Below are positions 54,977-64,000 of a stretch of DNA of 64,000 nt, in pieces. Position numbers and translations under genes: made by a program. Each line of letters begins with the position of its first letter. Position 1 is the stretch's first letter. The notes under the pieces are model-generated. The model had not been told where the DNA came from, did not search any database, and saw only the letters and a list, made by a program, of their open reading frames with translations. The DNA is from Actinomycetota bacterium. Lineage in GTDB: Bacteria; Actinomycetota; Actinomycetes; Actinomycetales; Microbacteriaceae. The DNA is taken from assembly GCA_020161315.1 (NCBI GenBank), contig JAIUOH010000013.1:1-64000 (forward strand). Reading direction: 5' to 3'.

Positions 54977-56608
54977 TTGGATTTCGCCAACCGCTCAGCC
55001 GACGGTCTTCCCGAGTCGGAGCTTATCGCCGCCTCGCGCGATGGCGATCGAGATGCCTACGCAGAACTCTGGACACGACATCGAGCTGCTGCGGTGCGCG
55101 CCGCCAAACCGCTTGCATTCAACAACGCTGAAGACGTGGTCTCGGACTCTTTTATCGCTATCTGGGAGCAGATGCAGAGAGGCGGAGGTCCGACAGGTCA
55201 CTTTCGTGCCTATCTGCTGTCAACGGTTCGCAACCGGGCGGTGACTCGCTATCACGCCGAGAGCCGGGTGCAGGTGGTTGCCGAGGTCGACGGTGATCCT
55301 GTGCAAGACAGCTCCCACGGGCTTGAGGCCGCAGAGCAGCGACGCGACGTGACAGTTGCTTTTCGCTCGTTGCCCGAACGCTGGCAGCAGGTGCTCTGGC
55401 TCACCGAGGTCGAACAGATACCGAGAAATGACATCGCGGCGAAACTGGATCTCAGCCCAAACTCCGTCTCGGCGCTCACTAGACGAGCAAAAGAGGGTCT
55501 CAAGATCGCGTGGCTTGAAGAGATACTGCCGTCGCCTGAGCAGCAAGTGCACCCGCAGGTGCAGGGACTGTTGCCAAGGTTTGTGCGCGGCAGTCTCGGG
55601 GCGAAGGACAGGGCAGCTGTGCGCTCGCACCTCACTTCGTGCGCGCTATGCCAGGCAACAGCGGATCAGATCAAGCAAGAGAACCATAGACTCGGAGGAA
55701 AATCGGCGGGTGTGCTTGGCTTGGTGCTCGTCGGAGGGTCGACCGCAGTGGGACAGAACGTCACAGCGGCCGGCGCAACCCCTCTTCTCGCAGTGCTGCA
55801 CAATATGGGCCTGCTGCCCAAGCTGCTTGCTCTCGGTTCGGCTGTGCTACTTGCTGGAGCGGCGATAGTGATCGCAGTGCTGGTGCAGCCTCAGGCAGAT
55901 GACGGAGTGGCAACAGGCCAAAATTCGCCGGGCAAGAGTGACTCCGAAAGAACGAGGGTTGCGGATTCAACGGCAACTGAACCCCGAGGATCGCAATCAG
56001 GCACTGCTCAGTCGTCAGACGGTAGCGCTGGCAGTCAGCTGCCTGCGGCCCCCGGCGGGGGGTCAGCCGGAGGTGGCGGATCTAGCGGTGAGGCCGAAGA
56101 CCCGGTGACACCGCGGGGGGAATTCATCGCGAGCGGCTCCGGGGCAGCTGGAATTGCTCCCGTAGTGAGTGGTGTAGCAGCACCGGGGAGTAACGTCGCG
56201 GTCTCGGTCGCGGGGCTGAGCTTTACTGTCGAGGCGGCGAGTGATGGCTCGTGGTCTACAGATCTCTCTACGCTCGGCCTGCCGGTTGGCGACTATATCG
56301 CGCAGGTGTCGACTGCTGTGAGCAACTGGGTTCCAAATACGCATTCCCTACCATTCGCGATCTCTACGCCGAGTGCTTCGCTCGCGTCTCCCGGGGTCGC
56401 GGGTACGGGGGCAGACATCTCACTGCTGGGGATTCCCGGATCACAGGTGTGCGTTCGTCTTGGATCGGGTACATACCAAATATTTCCACTCGATTCAGCC
56501 GGTGCAGGCGGGGGGAGACTTTCTGCTCCTTGGAGCCCCGGTATGACCATTCGCCTGGGGTATTGCACCGACGGACGCTTCGGCCCCTTCAACGTTTCGA
56601 CCCTGTGA
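54977..56608 (+). CDS. ECF sigma factor fused to zinc-finger, membrane helix and secreted domain
   Basis: The 543-residue polypeptide joins: sigma-70 region 2 (about 20-95), region 4 with HTH (about 120-175, IPRNDIAAKLDLSPNSVSALTRRAKEGL), a zf-HC2-like anti-sigma segment (about 190-230, RSHLTSCALCQATAD), a membrane helix (about 277-303), a Ser/Gly/Pro linker, and a beta-rich Ig-like exterior domain (about 376-543). Membrane tethering would hold the sigma part until release by proteolysis or an outside signal. TTG 54977 has CAGGGA at good spacing. Downstream genes encode surface proteins. Confidence 0.85.
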   Translation: MDFANRSADGLPESELIAASRDGDRDAYAELWTRHRAAAVRAAKPLAFNNAEDVVSDSFIAIWEQMQRGGGPTGHFRAYLLSTVRNRAVTRYHAESRVQVVAEVDGDPVQDSSHGLEAAEQRRDVTVAFRSLPERWQQVLWLTEVEQIPRNDIAAKLDLSPNSVSALTRRAKEGLKIAWLEEILPSPEQQVHPQVQGLLPRFVRGSLGAKDRAAVRSHLTSCALCQATADQIKQENHRLGGKSAGVLGLVLVGGSTAVGQNVTAAGATPLLAVLHNMGLLPKLLALGSAVLLAGAAIVIAVLVQPQADDGVATGQNSPGKSDSERTRVADSTATEPRGSQSGTAQSSDGSAGSQLPAAPGGGSAGGGGSSGEAEDPVTPRGEFIASGSGAAGIAPVVSGVAAPGSNVAVSVAGLSFTVEAASDGSWSTDLSTLGLPVGDYIAQVSTAVSNWVPNTHSLPFAISTPSASLASPGVAGTGADISLLGIPGSQVCVRLGSGTYQIFPLDSAGAGGGRLSAPWSPGMTIRLGYCTDGRFGPFNVSTL

Positions 56609-56752
56609 AGCTCGCCCCGAGGTCGGGGCTGTCAGATGCGCTGCAACGTAGGCGCAAAGTTTTTTCTGCCTTTGGCGTCACTTTTTCAGCTATCGCCTGA
56701 CTCTCTTGGCGACAACCGCGGTCTTCCGCGCGTCTTTAGAGGGGGAACGTCA

Positions 56753-59700
56753 ATGATTGACTTGTTGAAGAAGCTCACGAGTGGTGTGGCACTTGCCGCA
56801 TTGCTGGTCGGCTCCGCCGTCGTGCTCGGCACGGCTGCGCCTGCTCATGCCATAGTCGGTGACCCCTCGGTGGGTACCACACCGAACGGCGTGACGAGCG
56901 TCGCGGCGTCTGCTGGGAAATCTCGAGGATCAGGTCTCTGGGGGTATGCCGGTGACGTGAAAACTCGTGCGAGTGGGTACGCGTTCACATATGGTGTCGC
57001 GGTGAGCCCCGCTGACGAGAGTCTTTGGGTGACAGACAGCGCCAAGATCGTCTGGACGAGCAACGCGTTTCTCTGCGGACTCTATGGCGGCGTAGTGAAA
57101 GGCGGTAGCGCCTGCTACGTCGGTGAATCGGTCTTGCATCGCTACGCGCTGAACGCAGCTCCTGACTGGTCAATCGGTCAGTACCAGGGCAACGGAAGTT
57201 ATGGCGCGGCCGCTGTTGGCAGCAATGCGGGAGTGGGTGCCAACTACGCTGCACTCTCGAGCGCCCAGAACCTGAACGGCACGACTATGCCAAGTGGTCG
57301 CTTCGGCGGAGTCCGGGGGATCGCAGTCACCGAACAGGGAACCGCGTGGGCGATGGACGCTGATGCGGGTTACGCGTGGCTCAGTCACGCAGGCCACGCG
57401 CTGCGAATGGTGAACGCAGACGGGAGCGAAGCCGGCGCGCTGGGAAAGACGACCTGGCCGAGCGGTACAGGATGGACAAACCGTCATGACCCTGAATCGT
57501 TCGACTACCCTGTGGGCATCGCGCGGATGGCGAACGGCGACATGATCGTCACGAGCCAGACACCGGAGCTGCTGAAGCAGTACCATTCCGACGGCACCTT
57601 CGTGCGCAATATCTACTTGAACCAACCGGCTGGAACTGCATACACCGGTGATCCGGGGTATCGAAGCCCGTACGCGATTGCTGTCGACCCGGCAGACGGT
57701 ACTTTGCTCGTGGGGTACATCGACCCAGGAAACGGAAACCCGAGTTTTATTCAGCGCGTGGATCCGAACAACTGCGTGAGCGAGGCAGTGGGCAACCCGG
57801 CAGGTTCATCGCGAGACCGATGCGCAGTGCTCGATACCATCGGTGTCGGCGTGCTCGCGAACGGAACCGCGACCTCCAGCTCGCCCGCGGTGACGTTTAC
57901 CATTCAGGTCGAGCCGCGGACCGGAGACATCTATGTCGGGCAGCGCGACGGTGTGCTGCGATTGTTTGCCGCCGACGGTACTCCGAAAGGCAGTTTTCCA
58001 GTGTTCGGCAAAGGAACGGGAAACGGGCAAGTCGAGACAGTGCGCGGCATCGCGTTCGACGCTCGAGGTTTCATGTACGTCACCGTTTCGGAGGGCAAAG
58101 ACACGACCAGGGTGCAGATCTTCGCACGTACTCCAGACCCGATCACCGGGCTCACCGCGGTCTATAGCGACTCGGCCAAGACTGAGGCAACGATCTCCTG
58201 GGATGCGCTTGCAACCGGAGTAACTGCCGACGCCCAAGCGCCGGTTCGCGACTACGTGTTGGAGCAGTCGACCGACGGCGGCTCGACATGGTCGGTGCGG
58301 TCTACCACGATATCGACAGCACACTCGGAAGTCGTGACTGGCTTGGATCCTGCGCAGACCTATCAATTCAGGGTGTCGGCATGGAACGAGGCGGGCAATG
58401 GCGACTGGGCTGCCGTCCCTGTCGCCGAAGCACCGACCCATCCGAACCTCACAGTCGTCAAAAGCGGCAACGGGATCGAGACTGCTACCGCTGCGGATGC
58501 CGTTCAGGTTGATGCTGGCAGCACCGTGAACTTCGCCTATTCGATCACCAACACTGGGGACACTCCGGTCGAGATCACTCGAGTCAACGACAGCGTGCTC
58601 GGAGATCTCACCGCGCCATCGGGGTTCTCGGGCGCGCTCGGTCTGAACGAAAGTGTTGAGTTTCTCGCGTCTGGAGCAGTGCCTGCCGGCGCCTACCGAA
58701 ACACGGTCAGCGTCGAGTGGCGCGAAGCCGGGACGCAGCTCGCGCTGGTGCCCAAAACAGACGACTGGTTCGGCTTCGGAGTGACGAGGGATCTCAGTAT
58801 CGTGAAGACAGGCAACGGAGAGCTCGCCCTGACGGAAGATGACAGGGTCAACGTTGCTGCTGGCGTGAACGTCGCGTTCAATTACACGATCACCAACAAC
58901 GGCAACGTTCCGGTGACTGGCCTCGCCCTCGCCGATGACGTTCTCGGATCAGTGCAAGCTCCCGCCGGGTTCACTGGCACGCTTGACGCCAACGGAGGGT
59001 CGGTAACGTTCACTGCGACCGCTCCGGTGCCGGCCGGAGCGTACGTCAATACCGCGACTGCAACGGGATCTAGCGCTGGTCGGCCAGTGAGCGCGGAAAC
59101 CCGCTGGCACGGCTTCGGCGTCACCAGTGACCTCTCGGTGGTGAAGACCGGCAACGGAGTCGCGACCGCATCGGCGGATCAGCCCTATTACACGACAGCC
59201 GACGCCACGGTGCAGTTCGAGTACGCGATCACGAATAACGGCAACGCCGACGTGACCATTACATCGGTGAATGACGATGTGCTTGGCACGCTTGCTACCC
59301 CTGTCGGATTCAGTGGCGTGCTCGGCGCAGGCGCATCGGTTACCTACTTTGCATCGGGGCAGGTGCCGGCGGGTGACTACCACAACACGGTGATCGCCAC
59401 GGCTACCGCACAGGGTGGAGGCACTCTTTCCGCGAGCGACGAATGGTTCGGTTTCGGGGTGACCGACGACCTCAGTGTGGTCAAATCGGGCGACTCAGTG
59501 ACGAACGATAGCGCAGACGACGCGCACCGGGTCGTAGCTGGCAGCACCGTCGAGTTCGTCTACGTGGTGACGAACAGTGGCAATGCCCCCGTGGCGCTCA
59601 GCATCAGCGACGACCGACTCGGTCAGCTGACGCCCCCACCCGGGTTCTCGGGAACGCTCGGGGCCGGTCAGAGCGTCGAGTTCAAAGCGAACGGGGCGAT

Positions 59701-60319
59701 TCCTGCAGGTGATTATCACAATACCGCGACTGTCGATGGCAGGTCGTCTGCAGGCGTGGCGCTGCGCCCGAGCGATGACTGGTTTGGGTTTGGGGTTACC
59801 GACGGCCTGACTGTCGTGAAGACCGGAAACGGAATCGCAACAGCTTCCGAGGGCGAGGCGGTGCACGTCGCAGCAGGAAGCTTGGTGGAGTTCTCGTACA
59901 CCGTGACGAACGACGGCAACTCGCCGGTTGTGGTTTCGGAAGTCAGGGACGACCGCATCGGGCAGCTCTCACCACCCGCAGGATTCGGTGGAGTGCTCGG
60001 CGCGAACGAGAGCGTCGACTTCATCGCAAACGGATCAGTGCCCGCAGGCTCCTATCGCAATATCGCGACAGTGACCGCCGAGAACGAATTCGGTGCCCAG
60101 CTCACAGCGAGCGATGACTGGTTTGGCTTTGGTGATGTCAAGACCCCCGAGAATCCGGGAACGAACGAGGGCTCCGGCGGTGCGAACGGGGGCGGCCAGT
60201 TGCCGAACACCGGTGCAGCGGGCTTTGAGCCGCTCGCAATTGGAGCGGGGCTCCTGCTGCTGAGCGGTGCAGCGCTCGTGCTGATCCGCAGCCGCTCACG
60301 CCGCAGGCGGGCCGGATGA
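56753..60319 (+). CDS. Multidomain LPNTG-anchored surface protein
   Basis: The 1188-residue protein has a signal peptide cleaved after AHA33, an NHL/propeller-like region (about 50-460), a fibronectin-III domain (about 465-560), five tandem repeats of about 113 residues (about 564-1128), and a C-terminal LPNTG (about 1150), hydrophobic helix and RSRSRRRR tail for sortase anchoring. The repeats each open with LSVVKTGNG-like and end with WFGFGVT. ATG 56753 has AGAGGGGG upstream. It starts 144 bp after the fused sigma factor. Confidence 0.9.
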   Translation: MIDLLKKLTSGVALAALLVGSAVVLGTAAPAHAIVGDPSVGTTPNGVTSVAASAGKSRGSGLWGYAGDVKTRASGYAFTYGVAVSPADESLWVTDSAKIVWTSNAFLCGLYGGVVKGGSACYVGESVLHRYALNAAPDWSIGQYQGNGSYGAAAVGSNAGVGANYAALSSAQNLNGTTMPSGRFGGVRGIAVTEQGTAWAMDADAGYAWLSHAGHALRMVNADGSEAGALGKTTWPSGTGWTNRHDPESFDYPVGIARMANGDMIVTSQTPELLKQYHSDGTFVRNIYLNQPAGTAYTGDPGYRSPYAIAVDPADGTLLVGYIDPGNGNPSFIQRVDPNNCVSEAVGNPAGSSRDRCAVLDTIGVGVLANGTATSSSPAVTFTIQVEPRTGDIYVGQRDGVLRLFAADGTPKGSFPVFGKGTGNGQVETVRGIAFDARGFMYVTVSEGKDTTRVQIFARTPDPITGLTAVYSDSAKTEATISWDALATGVTADAQAPVRDYVLEQSTDGGSTWSVRSTTISTAHSEVVTGLDPAQTYQFRVSAWNEAGNGDWAAVPVAEAPTHPNLTVVKSGNGIETATAADAVQVDAGSTVNFAYSITNTGDTPVEITRVNDSVLGDLTAPSGFSGALGLNESVEFLASGAVPAGAYRNTVSVEWREAGTQLALVPKTDDWFGFGVTRDLSIVKTGNGELALTEDDRVNVAAGVNVAFNYTITNNGNVPVTGLALADDVLGSVQAPAGFTGTLDANGGSVTFTATAPVPAGAYVNTATATGSSAGRPVSAETRWHGFGVTSDLSVVKTGNGVATASADQPYYTTADATVQFEYAITNNGNADVTITSVNDDVLGTLATPVGFSGVLGAGASVTYFASGQVPAGDYHNTVIATATAQGGGTLSASDEWFGFGVTDDLSVVKSGDSVTNDSADDAHRVVAGSTVEFVYVVTNSGNAPVALSISDDRLGQLTPPPGFSGTLGAGQSVEFKANGAIPAGDYHNTATVDGRSSAGVALRPSDDWFGFGVTDGLTVVKTGNGIATASEGEAVHVAAGSLVEFSYTVTNDGNSPVVVSEVRDDRIGQLSPPAGFGGVLGANESVDFIANGSVPAGSYRNIATVTAENEFGAQLTASDDWFGFGDVKTPENPGTNEGSGGANGGGQLPNTGAAGFEPLAIGAGLLLLSGAALVLIRSRSRRRRAG
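58442..60136 (+). repeat. Five tandem coding repeats (DUF11-like)
   Basis: Units start at about 58442, 58787, 59126, 59465 and 59801 and are 336-345 bp long. Common pieces are VVK-GNG, FAYSITN-GN-PV, GFSG-LG-NE-VEF-A-G-VPAG-Y-NT and WFGFGVT. They resemble the DUF11/SpaA-like stalk domains of surface proteins. Confidence 0.88.
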
Positions 60320-60387
60320 GCATCGGTGGCCGGAGGCAGATCCGACTTCCGGTCACCGCCACCACACGAAGAAAGGAAACACGCAAG

Positions 60388-61503
60388 ATGAACCACACGA
60401 CCAAACGCAGAGGCGTCATGGCAGGAGCGGCTGCGCTGCTCGCGCTGAGCCCTCTGGCTCTTGCCACTTCGGCGAACGCAGCCGAGGGCGATATCTCGGT
60501 GAACTACTCAACACAGAACAATGCGTCTGCCCCGCTCGATGGCAGCTACACGGTGCACGGGCGCGTGGGCCAGCTGCGAGACGACATGCAAATGACCTAC
60601 ACCATCGAAGCGCAGGGCGTGACCTATCCAATGCCTGTCATCGAGTACACGGGCACTTTCGTCGACACCGCAGATGCGACCTATACGTTCCGCTTCAGCT
60701 GCCTCGCGGGCAGTCCTTGCGAGGCCTACCAGTACCAGGTCGATGCTATGAACGCGGTTGCGCAGAACCTCGATGGGCACTCAATCGCCGATTTCACGAC
60801 CGATGTCGCGCCGATCATCGATACCTTCGGGGGAAACGTGCCGGTCGGGGTTCAGGGAACCGTAACGGTATCGGTGCTATCCGATGTGCCGGGCACCGGG
60901 CAGCTCAGGTTCTGGCTGCAGGATCGCGACACGCAGGAGCACCTCTCGGTAACCGCGACGACGCCCCTCTCGATCACGCGGCCTGAGCTGAGCGGAGATT
61001 ACAGCCCGGCTGAACTCTGCGTGGCAGGTCTGCAGGAGTACGTCAAGGATGGCGTGAAGTACGCCCCGACCAACGCTGGGCGCGATCAGGTCGACCTGAA
61101 CGCAGTTGTGACTGACTCGGGCATCTTGCCCGACGATGCTACTCCGGTCGGCACTGCCGGTACCTTCTCGTACGCACTTGATAGCGGCACCGAAGGAAGC
61201 GAGAGCGACGTCACCGCGCAACTCCTGGCTGCTCCCGTAGGGGCACACGAGGTCGCAGTCGGCTACACGGCTCCCGACGGTGTACTGGCCGAGCGTGTGT
61301 TCGGAGAAATCACCGTGCTTGGCGCTGACTCCCCGAACTGCTGGAAGACCAGCACCGTGACGAAGCCGTCAGGCCCTGGACCGCTGGCTAACACTGGCTC
61401 TGAGAACTTGGGTGGGATCGCCCTCGGCGGCGGTGTGGCCGCGCTGCTGTGCGGAATGCTGCTGATCGGCGCCCGCTCATTGCGCCGCGCCCGCGCGCTC
61501 TAG
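60388..61503 (+). CDS. LANTG-anchored surface protein
   Basis: The 371-residue protein has a signal peptide (cleaved after ANA, about 30), a beta-rich exterior with scattered Cys pairs (FRFSCLAGSPCEAY, ELCVAGLQ), and a C-terminal PLANTGSENLGG, hydrophobic helix and RRARAL tail. LANTG replaces LPXTG (Ala for Pro), as in some actinobacterial class-E sortase substrates. It begins 68 bp after the LPNTG gene and is probably cotranscribed. ATG 60388 has GAAAGGA upstream. No family was recognised. Confidence 0.83.
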   Translation: MNHTTKRRGVMAGAAALLALSPLALATSANAAEGDISVNYSTQNNASAPLDGSYTVHGRVGQLRDDMQMTYTIEAQGVTYPMPVIEYTGTFVDTADATYTFRFSCLAGSPCEAYQYQVDAMNAVAQNLDGHSIADFTTDVAPIIDTFGGNVPVGVQGTVTVSVLSDVPGTGQLRFWLQDRDTQEHLSVTATTPLSITRPELSGDYSPAELCVAGLQEYVKDGVKYAPTNAGRDQVDLNAVVTDSGILPDDATPVGTAGTFSYALDSGTEGSESDVTAQLLAAPVGAHEVAVGYTAPDGVLAERVFGEITVLGADSPNCWKTSTVTKPSGPGPLANTGSENLGGIALGGGVAALLCGMLLIGARSLRRARAL

Positions 61504-61515
61504 GCGCTCCAATCT

Positions 61516-61569
61516 CCGGCAGCGGGGCAGGTCGCCCCCAACTCGATCTCCCCGTTGCCGGTTTCTTCT
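61516..61569 (+). terminator. Intrinsic terminator after the LANTG gene
   Basis: CCGGCAGCGGGG (61516-61527) pairs with CCCCGTTGCCGG (61550-61561) with one G-U pair, followed by TTTCTTCTT. Confidence 0.88.
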
Positions 61570-61575
61570 TCGATG

Positions 61576-61609
61576 TGTGAAGCGTTGACCGCTTCACATG
61601 TATATTTTT
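61576..61609 (+). promoter_or_regulatory. Second hairpin with T-run in the leader of the last gene
   Basis: TGTGAAGCG (61576-61584) pairs with CGCTTCACA (61590-61598), loop TTGAC, followed by TGTATATTTTT. It is either a second terminator or an operator/attenuator for the gene starting at 61631. Confidence 0.6.
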
Positions 61610-61630
61610 CTCGAAAGGTCGTTCCGTCGC

Positions 61631-64000
61631 ATGAGGTTCTCTCGAAAAGCCGCGCTTTCTATCGGTGTGATCGTAGGTCTGGTGTTTGGTTTGTTCACCG
61701 TTCCTGCAGTTGCCCTCGCGGCCCCGAACGGAGCGTTTACCTCGGTGGCGATCACCAAGGTGGCCGACGGCTATTCACTGACGAATAATCCGGTCGACTC
61801 TTCTGGTGACAACGGGATCGTCGCGGTGCGCGACTACGTGGGATTCAGGATCCAGGGCAACACCTCTGAAGCGGTCAGCGATGCGACGATGACCCTGACC
61901 AAACCGAGCTGCTGGGTTTGGGAAACAACGGTTGACCAGAATTTGAACTTCAACCTGGACAACGGGCAGACCACCGGATCCGTCGCGCACCCGGACGCCG
62001 ATACGATTGTCGTCACTTGGACGCAGGCGCCCAGCGGGACCGTGCTGACGCAGCCCTTCAGGGCGAAGGCGGGTGAGAGCTGCGCAGATGGATCGACCTG
62101 GACACCAGAGTTCAGCTACACAGATGCCTCGGGAACCCACACTCAAACCCTCGACACGCTGACGGTGCGTTCAGTTGCGAGCGCCGACATCTCGATTCAA
62201 ACGGTCGGCCAACCCAGCCTTGAACCGAATCGTTGGTTTGGCGGTGGGGCAACTGAATGGGGCGGCACCGGTGGCGCTGGTCCTGCTCTTGTACAGCGAT
62301 GGGATGTCTCGCTTCGCCCCGACGCCATTGCGAAGACCGGGTATGCGGATCCCGCCGGCGATATCACGTTCACCGTCGCATACTCCGGGCCGAGGTCTGC
62401 CTTCGAATTGCCCAGAGCCGGATCCGGCACACCGAATGTGCAGGGCGCAGGCTGTTGGGTCTACGTTTCGCCGAGCGCGACGAACAACGGACAGTTCTAC
62501 CCTTCGAGCGGTGCCCAGACGGTCACGATAACGATGAAGAAGAGCGCTGCATGCGAGGCCATGCTCGCCGACAACGGCAACAAGCTTGTCATCTACTCGT
62601 TCACCCCGCAGAAGGTGCTCGAAGACAACTACGGGTGCAGCGCCAACCTCGGCGCCACCGTGGCTCCAACAGCTGGCTGGCAGGATCAGCAGGGGCGAAC
62701 GATCGCTGATTCGAACCCCTCGAACAACACGGCCGCGGTGCCGCTCTCGTGCCAGACGGTTGTCTACGATTCAAACTGGGGTTCGGCATACTTCACGCCG
62801 AAGGACGAGGGCGCGAACCTCGCGGCCGCCTACCCAGAGAACAGTACGGGGCACCCGATCGTTGCTGCTGCGGCGCAGAACGAGTGGGCGATGCTTTCAA
62901 CGAACGCGACAAACGGTGCAGGCTTCATCGGAGTCGGCGGTACCTTTACCAGCGAGGCCGGGCTTTCGCCATCAGCCCCGAAACTGACCGATCTCACCAG
63001 CTTTCATCTCTGGGATCCTTCGGTGCAACAGATCGACCTGGCAAATCTCGACGCAGCCGTGCTCGGCGCGATGCGGCCCGCGAGTTCTGCCCCAGCAAGC
63101 CTAGTGCTGGATCCGAGCACGTATGACCGCAGCTGCACCACTGGATATGACGGAACGAACGCGGCAAGCGTGGGTTCGATGGTCTGGGCCGACTGCGCGT
63201 CGCTCGACCCGACACAGATCAGCGGTATTCGCTTCTTCAGAGCTGGAGTCTTTAACGGAGAGAATTTCAACGTCAACTTTCCCGCTTCGAAACTGATGTT
63301 CTCGCAGGTGCCGATGAGGGTCGTCGGTGATGTCGGTGACAGGCTGCCGACCCGCACCATCTGGCAGGCGGCCGAGCTGGCTCAGACTACGAATTACGAT
63401 GTCTCGGCCACGATCATCGGCAACGTGCTGCGAATCGGCAAGAGTGCTCAGGAGTCGCAGGTGATCCCTGAGGGTGAAATCCACTACACGCTGAAACCGG
63501 CGGTCGCGACTCCGGCAGGAACCTTCTCCCCAGGAGACGTCGAGAACCTCGTCGTGGTCGACAAGCTCGACATCGGTGTGCAGAGCGTTGATCTGAGCAA
63601 CGTCGATCCGTTCTGGGATGTGACGCAGCAGCCAGCTGATTTCGGATCCGATGGGGTGCCCTACACTTCTGATGATGTGCGCGGGATCGTGCTGACTTTT
63701 ACTCCTTCAGGGCAAGTGCAGAGTAGCGACACCCTGCCGCAGATCGACTATACGGCGAAGATGGGAATCCTGCTTCCACCGCAGGCTGCACCCTATAGCG
63801 CGACTGTCAAGAACACCGCAACGGTAGCCGCCGACGGAATGGATCCAGAGGTCGCTGCGGGGATAACGCCGAAGCGCCACAGTGCAAGCGCCTCAGTGCT
63901 GGCAGGCACACCTGAAGCCGCCTTCTTCTCGAAGCAGCTCATCTCGGAGCCGGTGATCGAAGTCGACGATCTGCCGGTGGCATGGCGCGTGCAGTGGGTG
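61631..64000 (+). CDS. Large secreted protein, 3' end outside the window
   Basis: The frame from ATG 61631 stays open for 790 codons to the last base, so the protein is incomplete. It starts with a signal peptide (MRFSRKAALSIGVIVGLVFG..., cleavage after ALA at about 30). Acidic, Asn/Thr-rich, beta-like sequence follows with scattered Cys (KPSCWVW, GCCWVYVSP-like, YGCSANLG). No repeats like those of the LPNTG gene are visible, but the final segment (DYTAKMGI, NTATVAADG) hints at DUF11-like domains to come. CGAAAGGT precedes the ATG. Likely a wall-anchored adhesin or stalk, with its anchor beyond the window. Confidence 0.85.
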   Translation, partial: MRFSRKAALSIGVIVGLVFGLFTVPAVALAAPNGAFTSVAITKVADGYSLTNNPVDSSGDNGIVAVRDYVGFRIQGNTSEAVSDATMTLTKPSCWVWETTVDQNLNFNLDNGQTTGSVAHPDADTIVVTWTQAPSGTVLTQPFRAKAGESCADGSTWTPEFSYTDASGTHTQTLDTLTVRSVASADISIQTVGQPSLEPNRWFGGGATEWGGTGGAGPALVQRWDVSLRPDAIAKTGYADPAGDITFTVAYSGPRSAFELPRAGSGTPNVQGAGCWVYVSPSATNNGQFYPSSGAQTVTITMKKSAACEAMLADNGNKLVIYSFTPQKVLEDNYGCSANLGATVAPTAGWQDQQGRTIADSNPSNNTAAVPLSCQTVVYDSNWGSAYFTPKDEGANLAAAYPENSTGHPIVAAAAQNEWAMLSTNATNGAGFIGVGGTFTSEAGLSPSAPKLTDLTSFHLWDPSVQQIDLANLDAAVLGAMRPASSAPASLVLDPSTYDRSCTTGYDGTNAASVGSMVWADCASLDPTQISGIRFFRAGVFNGENFNVNFPASKLMFSQVPMRVVGDVGDRLPTRTIWQAAELAQTTNYDVSATIIGNVLRIGKSAQESQVIPEGEIHYTLKPAVATPAGTFSPGDVENLVVVDKLDIGVQSVDLSNVDPFWDVTQQPADFGSDGVPYTSDDVRGIVLTFTPSGQVQSSDTLPQIDYTAKMGILLPPQAAPYSATVKNTATVAADGMDPEVAAGITPKRHSASASVLAGTPEAAFFSKQLISEPVIEVDDLPVAWRVQWV

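What the first reader, a model, noticed from the sequence alone, without database searches (positions are those of the whole stretch)
54977..64000. Fused sigma/anti-sigma factor with a secreted domain heading a surface-protein locus
One gene encodes ECF sigma regions 2 and 4, a zf-HC2 segment, a membrane helix and an Ig-like exterior domain. All four genes that follow to the window end (or three complete and one partial) encode exported proteins, two with sortase motifs. ECF groups with C-terminal membrane and exterior extensions are known in actinobacteria (named ECF52/53 in the ECF classification, from memory), but the tie to a private LPNTG/LANTG locus suggests the exterior domain senses wall or ligand state and the sigma part drives the surface genes. 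Seen: domain order and gene order. Inferred: the signalling.
Basis: partly seen in the sequence, partly recalled or inferred. Interest (0 to 1): 0.85.

Follow-up and report, generated by a model that had tools for sequence, protein, structure and literature searches.

The report
Membrane sigma factor beside surface genes
A bacterial gene switch that spans the membrane, with a control part inside and adhesin-like domains probably outside, sits beside cell-surface genes whose first gene carries a promoter found mostly near such switches, so it probably turns on its own neighbours.

Summary
The gene at 54977-56608 is real: sigma-70 regions 2 and 4, a zf-HC2 segment with four zinc ligands (H192, H218, C222, C225), one clear membrane helix, then two Ig-like regions. 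Three genes, not four, follow; the third runs past the window to contig position 66994. The first two carry LPNTG and LANTG, the third LSLTG beyond the window.

New here: a promoter-like dyad, CGTCACTTT-N15-ACTCT, at 56676-56704, just before the first surface gene. Two dyad patterns searched in 54 genomes of the genus gave 20 matches: 15 within 2.5 kb of a fused-sigma gene, 3 more in such loci, 1 before LtrA, 1 unplaced. The patterns came from such loci; of 8 matches not used to form them, 6 lie in such loci. Of 60 fused-sigma genes in the genus, 33 have a sortase-type gene within three genes (5 of 122 controls; 1 of 20 in other genera).

Best reading: a one-component ECF sigma/anti-sigma that activates its own surface operon. 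Binding, release and signal are untested, and 39 of 60 loci show neither dyad. The architecture is known (ECF48/52/53); the expansion beside surface genes and the promoter look like a new variant.

The parts
54977..56608 (+). fused ECF sigma / zf-HC2 anti-sigma / membrane / Ig-like exterior gene (543 aa, TTG start)
55073..55267 (+). sigma region 2 (aa 33-97)
   Evidence: Pfam PF04542, E 5e-6, above gathering score; AlphaFold2 mean pLDDT above 90 for aa 31-90
55349..55495 (+). sigma region 4 (aa 125-173)
   Evidence: Pfam PF08281, E 6.4e-6, above gathering score
55550..55651 (+). zinc anti-sigma segment, ligands H192, H218, C222, C225
   Evidence: Pfam PF13490; H218/C222/C225 invariant in 20 of 20 sequences (window and 19 of the 26 loci); column 192 is Cys in 57 and His in 18 of 88 (whose rows were chosen by the Hx3Cx2C pattern)
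55829..55885 (+). membrane helix (aa 285-303)
   Evidence: hydropathy; topology not proven
56102..56605 (+). two Ig-like exterior regions (about aa 376-460 and 461-543); the second has two cysteines (C492, C530), also in the G033 and G026 orthologs
   Evidence: Ca_tandemer, under its cut-off; all-beta, low confidence; alignment, cysteines
56637..56666 (+). terminator-like hairpin with T run between the sigma gene and the surface promoter
   Evidence: 4 such sites in 2.2 kb, 1.6 expected; weak on its own
56676..56704 (+). promoter-like dyad CGTCACTTT-N15-ACTCT before the first surface gene
56753..60319 (+). surface gene 1: 1188 aa, signal-peptide-like N-terminus, Fn3, five DUF7507 stretches, LPNTG anchor
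60388..61503 (+). surface gene 2: 371 aa, signal-peptide-like N-terminus, LANTG anchor, no Pfam match at E 0.1; 68 nt after gene 1, likely same operon
61631..64000 (+). surface gene 3 (partial in window; ends at contig position 66994, SdrD_B domain, LSLTG anchor)

Best explanation
The gene encodes a one-component transmembrane regulator. An ECF sigma factor is held at the membrane by its own zinc anti-sigma segment; a stalk carries Ig-like domains outside. When the exterior receives a signal, the sigma part is freed, probably by regulated proteolysis, and RNA polymerase then starts at CGTCAC-N17-19-CTCT promoters: before surface gene 1 (operon with gene 2), after gene 3, before the partner of the C13 paralog and before LtrA. 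Shown by sequence: domains, zinc ligands, a conserved gene block, and a dyad found mostly at fused-sigma loci. Inferred: that this sigma reads the dyad, the exterior topology, the release step and the signal.
For: Domains and zinc ligands. Same gene block in G033 and, split over two contigs, in G026. The dyad stands before surface gene 1 in the window and G033, right after the sigma gene in G026, before the sigma gene in G033, and after surface gene 3 in all three. In 54 genomes CGTCACTTTN{14,17}ACTCT gives 9 matches (backwards control 3) and CGTCACGATTN{8,14}CGTGTTA gives 11 (control 0). 15 of these 20 lie within 2.5 kb of a fused-sigma match, 3 more in such loci (own C1:67076, G032:C73:35485, G026:C35), 1 before LtrA, 1 unplaced. 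GCGTCAC is in 26 of 106 partner upstreams on the sense strand and 4 antisense; control upstreams have 3 and 9 of 198. A weight matrix (seeds from such loci) finds 39 sites in 1,008,060 bases around fused sigma genes, some weak and inside genes, and 0 in 280,020 control bases. Four sortases and one M50 protease are encoded.
Against: The patterns were formed on fused-sigma loci. Not used to form them were 8 of the 20 matches: 6 in such loci (one of them, G032:C73:44495, had been seen), 1 before LtrA, 1 unplaced. 39 of 60 loci show neither dyad within 2.5 kb. Three of the five complete fused genes of this genome (C31, C63, C27) have no dyad before their surface gene. The window's sigma gene has none itself. 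In G026 the dyad after sigma runs within a few bases into a transposase-like sequence at the contig end, and surface gene 1 starts on another contig behind what looks like the other end of one (read by eye): there the promoter may be cut off from gene 1. Total dyad length varies (27-30 nt). C1 and C13 types share the dyad, so which sigma acts is open. Topology is unproven: a weaker hydrophobic stretch lies near aa 243-262 and many relatives score two helices. No expression data.
Confidence: 0.67

Rival explanations
1. The CGTCAC element is a binding site of another regulator or is read by a different sigma; the fused sigma sits there because surface islands collect regulators.
For: The motif also precedes LtrA and, once, isocitrate dehydrogenase, genes not linked to a fused sigma; the C13 paralog's partner has a similar dyad; I found no published ECF -35 that matches CGTCAC.
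Against: Two-part element with narrow spacing (27-30 nt in all) and a variable spacer; 18 of 20 whole-genome matches lie in fused-sigma loci, though partly by construction; in some loci it also precedes the sigma gene (L070, L076, L081, L082); the -10 half follows sigma clades.
Confidence: 0.17
2. The protein is a general envelope-stress regulator (as its mostly single-copy relatives in other genera may be) and its place beside surface genes in this genus does not reflect a dedicated circuit.
For: In other genera of the family the gene is mostly in one or two copies and seldom beside sortase genes (1 of 20); SCO4117 of Streptomyces is pleiotropic (PMC5826349, abstract).
Against: 33 of 60 fused genes examined in this genus are near sortase-type genes, matches reach 20 per genome, and dyads point at those genes.
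Confidence: 0.11
3. The gene is a decayed or unrestrained copy: the sigma part is not held and the exterior is vestigial.
For: TTG start; no dyad before the gene; zf-HC2 match is weak (25.8 bits, cut-off 22.2).
Against: All zinc ligands are present and both Ig-like regions are conserved in two orthologs at 34-42% identity.
Confidence: 0.05

Closest known systems
ECF52 sigma factors (SCO4117 of Streptomyces coelicolor; PMC5826349, outline, abstract and passages seen)
   Same: sigma domain, zinc finger, transmembrane region and an exterior extension in one actinobacterial protein; proteolytic release proposed
   Different: [quoted passage not shown] coelicolor; here a Ser/Gly-rich linker, Ig-like regions, several copies, neighbouring sortase-type genes, and another promoter motif (CGTCAC..ACTCT, not CSGYN-17-SRHA)
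ECF48/ECF53 fused sigma factors (PMC8999054, passages seen)
   Same: C-terminal anti-sigma fusion with zinc finger and one to two helices, expected to be activated by proteolysis
   Different: no link to a surface-protein locus is mentioned in the passages seen
IutY (ECF243) of Pseudomonas putida (PMC8999054, passages seen)
   Same: sigma and membrane anti-sigma in one chain, activated by cleavage
   Different: [quoted passage not shown] no zf-HC2 and no Ig exterior (recalled)
SigI/RsgI pairs of Clostridium thermocellum (PMC4711584, PMC12203970; search listing only)
   Same: several paralogous sigma/membrane anti-sigma units with outside sensors that control cell-surface machinery
   Different: two separate genes, unrelated sigma and anti-sigma families (recalled), cellulosome targets

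Membership tests
ECF52 | sigma regions 2 and 4 with C-terminal zinc finger and transmembrane segment | tested here: met
ECF52 | proline-rich linker | tested here: not met
   aa 306-375 hold 4 Pro against 15 Gly and 13 Ser in 70 residues
ECF52 | carbohydrate-binding domain outside | tested here: not met
   no Pfam carbohydrate-binding match at E 0.1; an Ig-type match under its cut-off instead
ECF52 | placement by the ECF classification's own models | not testable with these tools
   models not on hand; classification paper not held
ECF53 | C-terminal anti-sigma fusion with zinc finger and one to two helices | tested here: met
   description from PMC8999054 passages
ECF53 | placement by the ECF classification's own models | not testable with these tools
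   as for ECF52
zinc anti-sigma (ZAS) domain | Hx3Cx2C plus an upstream His or Cys ligand (motif recalled) | tested here: met
   H192, H218, C222, C225
SigI/RsgI | anti-sigma on a separate gene with an RsgI-type N-terminal domain (recalled) | tested here: not met
   one fused gene with zf-HC2; no RsgI-type family in the Pfam list at E 0.1
sortase-anchored surface proteins | exported N-terminus, LPXTG-like motif, hydrophobic stretch, charged tail | tested here: met
   LPNTG, LANTG, LSLTG by script; NCBIfam LPXTG_anchor above its cut-off for gene 1 only, Pfam Gram_pos_anchor just under it; four sortases in the genome

The most novel reading that the evidence does not exclude
The sigma-type promoter also drives a small non-coding RNA. 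After surface gene 3 in all three genomes with this locus, and near the C13-type locus in two genomes, a dyad is followed by about 110-150 nt without a conserved reading frame, with a short 5' hairpin, C-rich stretches and a very stable hairpin (z -3.2 to -5.0 against crude shuffles). The circuit would then be a one-chain membrane sigma with a protein arm (adhesins) and an RNA arm, like sigma-E with its small RNAs (recalled).
Probability: 0.3. Interest if true: 0.75.

Novelty: new variant of a known kind. Interest (0 to 1): 0.62.

Why it matters
Among fused ECF sigma/anti-sigma proteins of actinobacteria the best understood is SCO4117 (PMC8999054, passages), whose promoter motif its authors call theoretical (PMC5826349, passages). 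Here one genus carries up to 20 matches per genome, and 51 of the 60 examined have an exported or sortase-type gene close by, some with a readable promoter that points at those genes. That makes the sigma-promoter code, the signal and the release step directly testable, and suggests a way for Gram-positive bacteria to switch whole adhesin sets with a single protein each.

Tried and rejected
Own-gene autoregulation in the window: no dyad before 54977; a sigma-70-type consensus was not found there either. A dyad before all four genes: not found.

Target search for the putative small RNA: duplex energies with the leaders of the sigma gene and surface genes 1 to 3 (-43.2 to -57.0) were not better than the 5% tail (-65.3) of 201 control leaders, so no target is claimed. 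Rfam at gathering thresholds on 7 loci gave only a tRNA.

RNAalifold on the class B leader found 3 pairs only; a helix that I named by eye was then counted: 76.5% of cells paired, 6 of 12 pairs with changes on both sides, but a slide of -1 reaches 71.2%. Moderate support only.

Exterior fold: two-sequence alignment, mean pLDDT 54.7; its top hits, Bap and SiiE, agree with the sequence match but prove little. Pfam names an Ig-type exterior in few of the 60 genus proteins (Big_13 in 3, Big_6 in 2) and zf-HC2 in 43 of 60 at E 0.001. Cytoplasmic model: sigma and zinc segments confident, pTM 0.48, and query TM-scores of the nine Foldseek hits at E 0.001 or better are 0.20-0.24, so the mutual placing of domains is not used as evidence.

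Weight matrix in other genera: 3 sites in 275,018 bases, one between genes near a fused sigma (L226), two inside a gene. The site before isocitrate dehydrogenase (C74:63299): conservation not tested. C46:4766 lies in or near coding sequence; treated as chance.

Rows dropped: of 66 neighbourhoods examined (6 own, 60 fetched), 6 gave no fused gene by my script (L012, L091, L099, L114, L115, L117); 60 fused genes remain. The 60 fetched regions are part of the places printed, whose own list was cut; I took them mostly in E-value order and skipped several at contig edges. In one search, 16 of 60 sigma upstreams could not be defined, so the first dyad search used 44. Control: 20 regions at round coordinates. 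Of 26 named loci, 25 gave a fused gene; 8 of the 26 entered the tree. L076 was labelled class B there by a loose pattern but has a class A-like site.

Literature: no paper joining fused ECF sigma factors to sortase surface loci showed in the listings (open-access library only; some searches listed 10 of 254, 10 of 119 and 8 of 28). Two key ECF papers are not held.

Mended on re-check: the invariance of H218/C222/C225 in 88 of 88 rows is by selection (rows were chosen by that pattern), so one search is cited instead; the comparison of surface gene 1 in G026 had been read in the wrong frame and was redone; the total dyad length is 27-30 nt, not fixed; the G026 promoter may be interrupted. For these reasons confidence went from 0.70 to 0.67.
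Full report
What is there. The gene at 54977-56608 encodes 543 aa with sigma-70 region 2, region 4 and zf-HC2, each above Pfam's gathering score. The zinc ligands are complete: H192, H218, C222, C225. The last three are invariant in the window and 19 relatives; the column of H192 holds Cys in 57 and His in 18 of 88 rows (those rows were chosen by Hx3Cx2C). One clear membrane helix begins at aa 285. A Ser/Gly-rich linker and two all-beta regions follow. The first has a match to an Ig-type adhesin repeat that stays under that model's cut-off; a low-confidence model of both resembles Bap and SiiE repeats. The cytoplasmic model's best Foldseek hits are ECF sigma factors such as sigma-E, AlgU and SigW.

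The neighbours. Upstream is citrate synthase, with no evident link. Downstream are three genes, not four: surface gene 1 (LPNTG, Fn3, five DUF7507 stretches), gene 2 (LANTG) and gene 3, which runs beyond the window to contig position 66994 with SdrD_B and LSLTG. The genome encodes four sortases and one M50 protease; M50 is in 14 of 14 control genomes and so proves little.

The family. This genome has five further fused genes: C13, C31, C63, C27 and C47, the last cut by a contig end. In the genus 47 of 54 genomes have at least one match at E 1e-10; two have 20 and 15. Of 199 genomes drawn from the family 75 have a match at E 1e-15, mostly one or two. Of 60 fused genes examined in the genus, 33 have a sortase-type gene within three genes on either side and 51 a sortase-type or exported gene of at least 400 aa. 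Control genes give 5 and 29 of 122, fused genes of other genera 1 and 3 of 20, named relatives (Nocardioides, Jiangella and others) 0 and 0 of 25. Gene calling was a simple script and control windows overlap, so the Fisher values are indicative only.

The locus as a unit. The order sigma, gene 1, gene 2, gene 3 recurs in G033 (L070, L187). In G026 sigma ends one contig (L071) and genes 1-3 lie on another (L188). To the window, G033 is 61, 58 and 62% identical in genes 1, 2 and 3; G026 is 65% over the first 581 aa of gene 1, 58% in gene 2 and 58% in gene 3; sigma is 40 and 38%. In G004, G019 and G020, and in one genome of another genus (L225), a fused sigma stands beside a different set of large exported proteins; in G004 these hold DUF11/DUF7927, RCC1 and FKBP domains.

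The promoter. A dyad count on 44 sigma upstreams found TAACACGG..ATCGTGACG in one orthologous group; read towards the divergent giant surface gene it is CGTCACGATT..CGTGTTA (class B). Comparing the window with its orthologs gave CGTCACTTT..ACTCT (class A) before surface gene 1 in the window and G033, after the sigma gene in G026, and before the sigma gene in G033. In 106 upstream regions of exported neighbours CGTCAC is on the sense strand in 33 and on the antisense strand in 11, GCGTCAC in 26 and 4; 198 control upstreams have 18 and 28, and 3 and 9. Searches of 54 genomes gave 9 matches (control 3) and 11 matches (control 0). Of these 20, 15 lie within 2.5 kb of a fused sigma, 3 elsewhere in such loci, 1 before LtrA, 1 unplaced.

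How circular this is. Class A was first seen in four sites; the five other class A matches are own C1:67076, G026:C35, G026:C69 (LtrA) and two in G032, one of which one search had already shown. Class B was formed on eight of its eleven loci; the three others are G039 and G042 (both about 0.2 kb from a fused sigma) and G024 (unplaced). So of 8 matches not used to form the patterns 6 lie in fused-sigma loci. The binomial value printed ignores this and rests on a guessed number of loci, so I do not use it. A weight matrix from nine seeds finds 7 sites in 127,772 own bases, 39 in 1,008,060 bases around fused genes of the genus (several weak and inside genes), 3 in 275,018 bases of other genera, and 0 in 280,020 control bases.

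Two classes, one -35. Class A loci fall in one part of the sigma tree and class B loci in another, apart from L076, which a loose pattern mislabelled; 39 of 60 loci carry neither label. L009 is among the 39 because its dyad lies just beyond 2.5 kb. In another genus (L241) similar sites precede the fused sigma and its divergent 2007-aa neighbour. In the window a terminator-like hairpin with a T run (56637-56666) lies between the sigma stop and the dyad, so gene 1 may have its own start. In G026 the dyad is followed within a few bases by transposase-like sequence at the contig end, and gene 1 begins on the other contig behind similar sequence (by eye), so an insertion may separate them.

Targets outside the locus. 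The dyad precedes the LtrA gene in this genome, in G032 (96% identical protein) and in G026 (85%), but not in G024 (84%) or G042 (79%), nor in the other LtrA genes that could be read; 6 of 27 gave no anchor.

The short transcript. After gene 3 in three genomes and at a matching place near the C13-type locus in two, a dyad is followed by a stretch without a conserved frame that folds strongly. The last hairpin could simply be the terminator of the converging gene. No target was found.

Mechanism. Shown by sequence: domains, ligands, gene order, promoter-like sites. Inferred from known ECF biology: the zinc segment holds the sigma part, a signal outside leads to cleavage, and the freed sigma starts transcription; this route is expected for ECF48/52/53 and shown for IutY (PMC8999054, passages; PMC5826349, abstract and passages). 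What the Ig-like exterior senses is unknown; feedback from the surface partner, wall state and glycan binding are all open.

Comparison. The architecture is known. Two features described for ECF52, the proline-rich extension and the carbohydrate-binding domain, are not met, and the ECF classification's models could not be run, so no group is assigned. Of nine relatives scanned from other genera, some carry Big_9 with cadherin-like, Big_6/Big_13, I-set or ricin-lectin exteriors. What looks new is the expansion in one genus beside surface genes and the two-class promoter; no paper on this showed in the listings.

Noticed in passing
G000:C11:10320-10348 (L014), G032 (L199), G026:C69:39243 (L189): The sigma-type dyad precedes the LtrA (PF06772) gene in three genomes, with no fused sigma beside it in the stretches read.
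   Followed up: partly
G000:C1:67076-67104 (L008 14077), L188 1141 minus, L187 7586, L009 2706 minus, L190 5514 minus: Dyad followed by 110-150 nt that fold strongly and hold no conserved reading frame: a possible sigma-dependent small RNA.
   Followed up: partly
L097, L098, L099, L101, L109, L110, L114, L116, L117, L122, L127, leader of the giant divergent surface gene: A 12-pair hairpin with a C-rich loop right after the class B promoter, with some double changes; moderate support.
   Followed up: partly
G000:C74:63299 (L197 5300): A class A-like dyad 78 nt before monomeric isocitrate dehydrogenase.
   Followed up: no
L072, L073, L074, L192, L193, L194 and L225: A fused sigma beside a set of large exported proteins (one of 3226 aa with DUF11/DUF7927 repeats in G004, with RCC1 and FKBP proteins), also in another genus.
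   Followed up: partly
L071 end (G026:C41) and L250 (start side of gene 1 on G026:C35): Transposase-like sequence directly after the dyad and before surface gene 1: an insertion may separate promoter and gene in this species.
   Followed up: partly
G051 and G012: 20 and 15 fused-sigma matches in single genomes.
   Followed up: partly
G000:C27 (L013 75-1325): The C27 paralog is followed by an exported RCC1-repeat protein.
   Followed up: no
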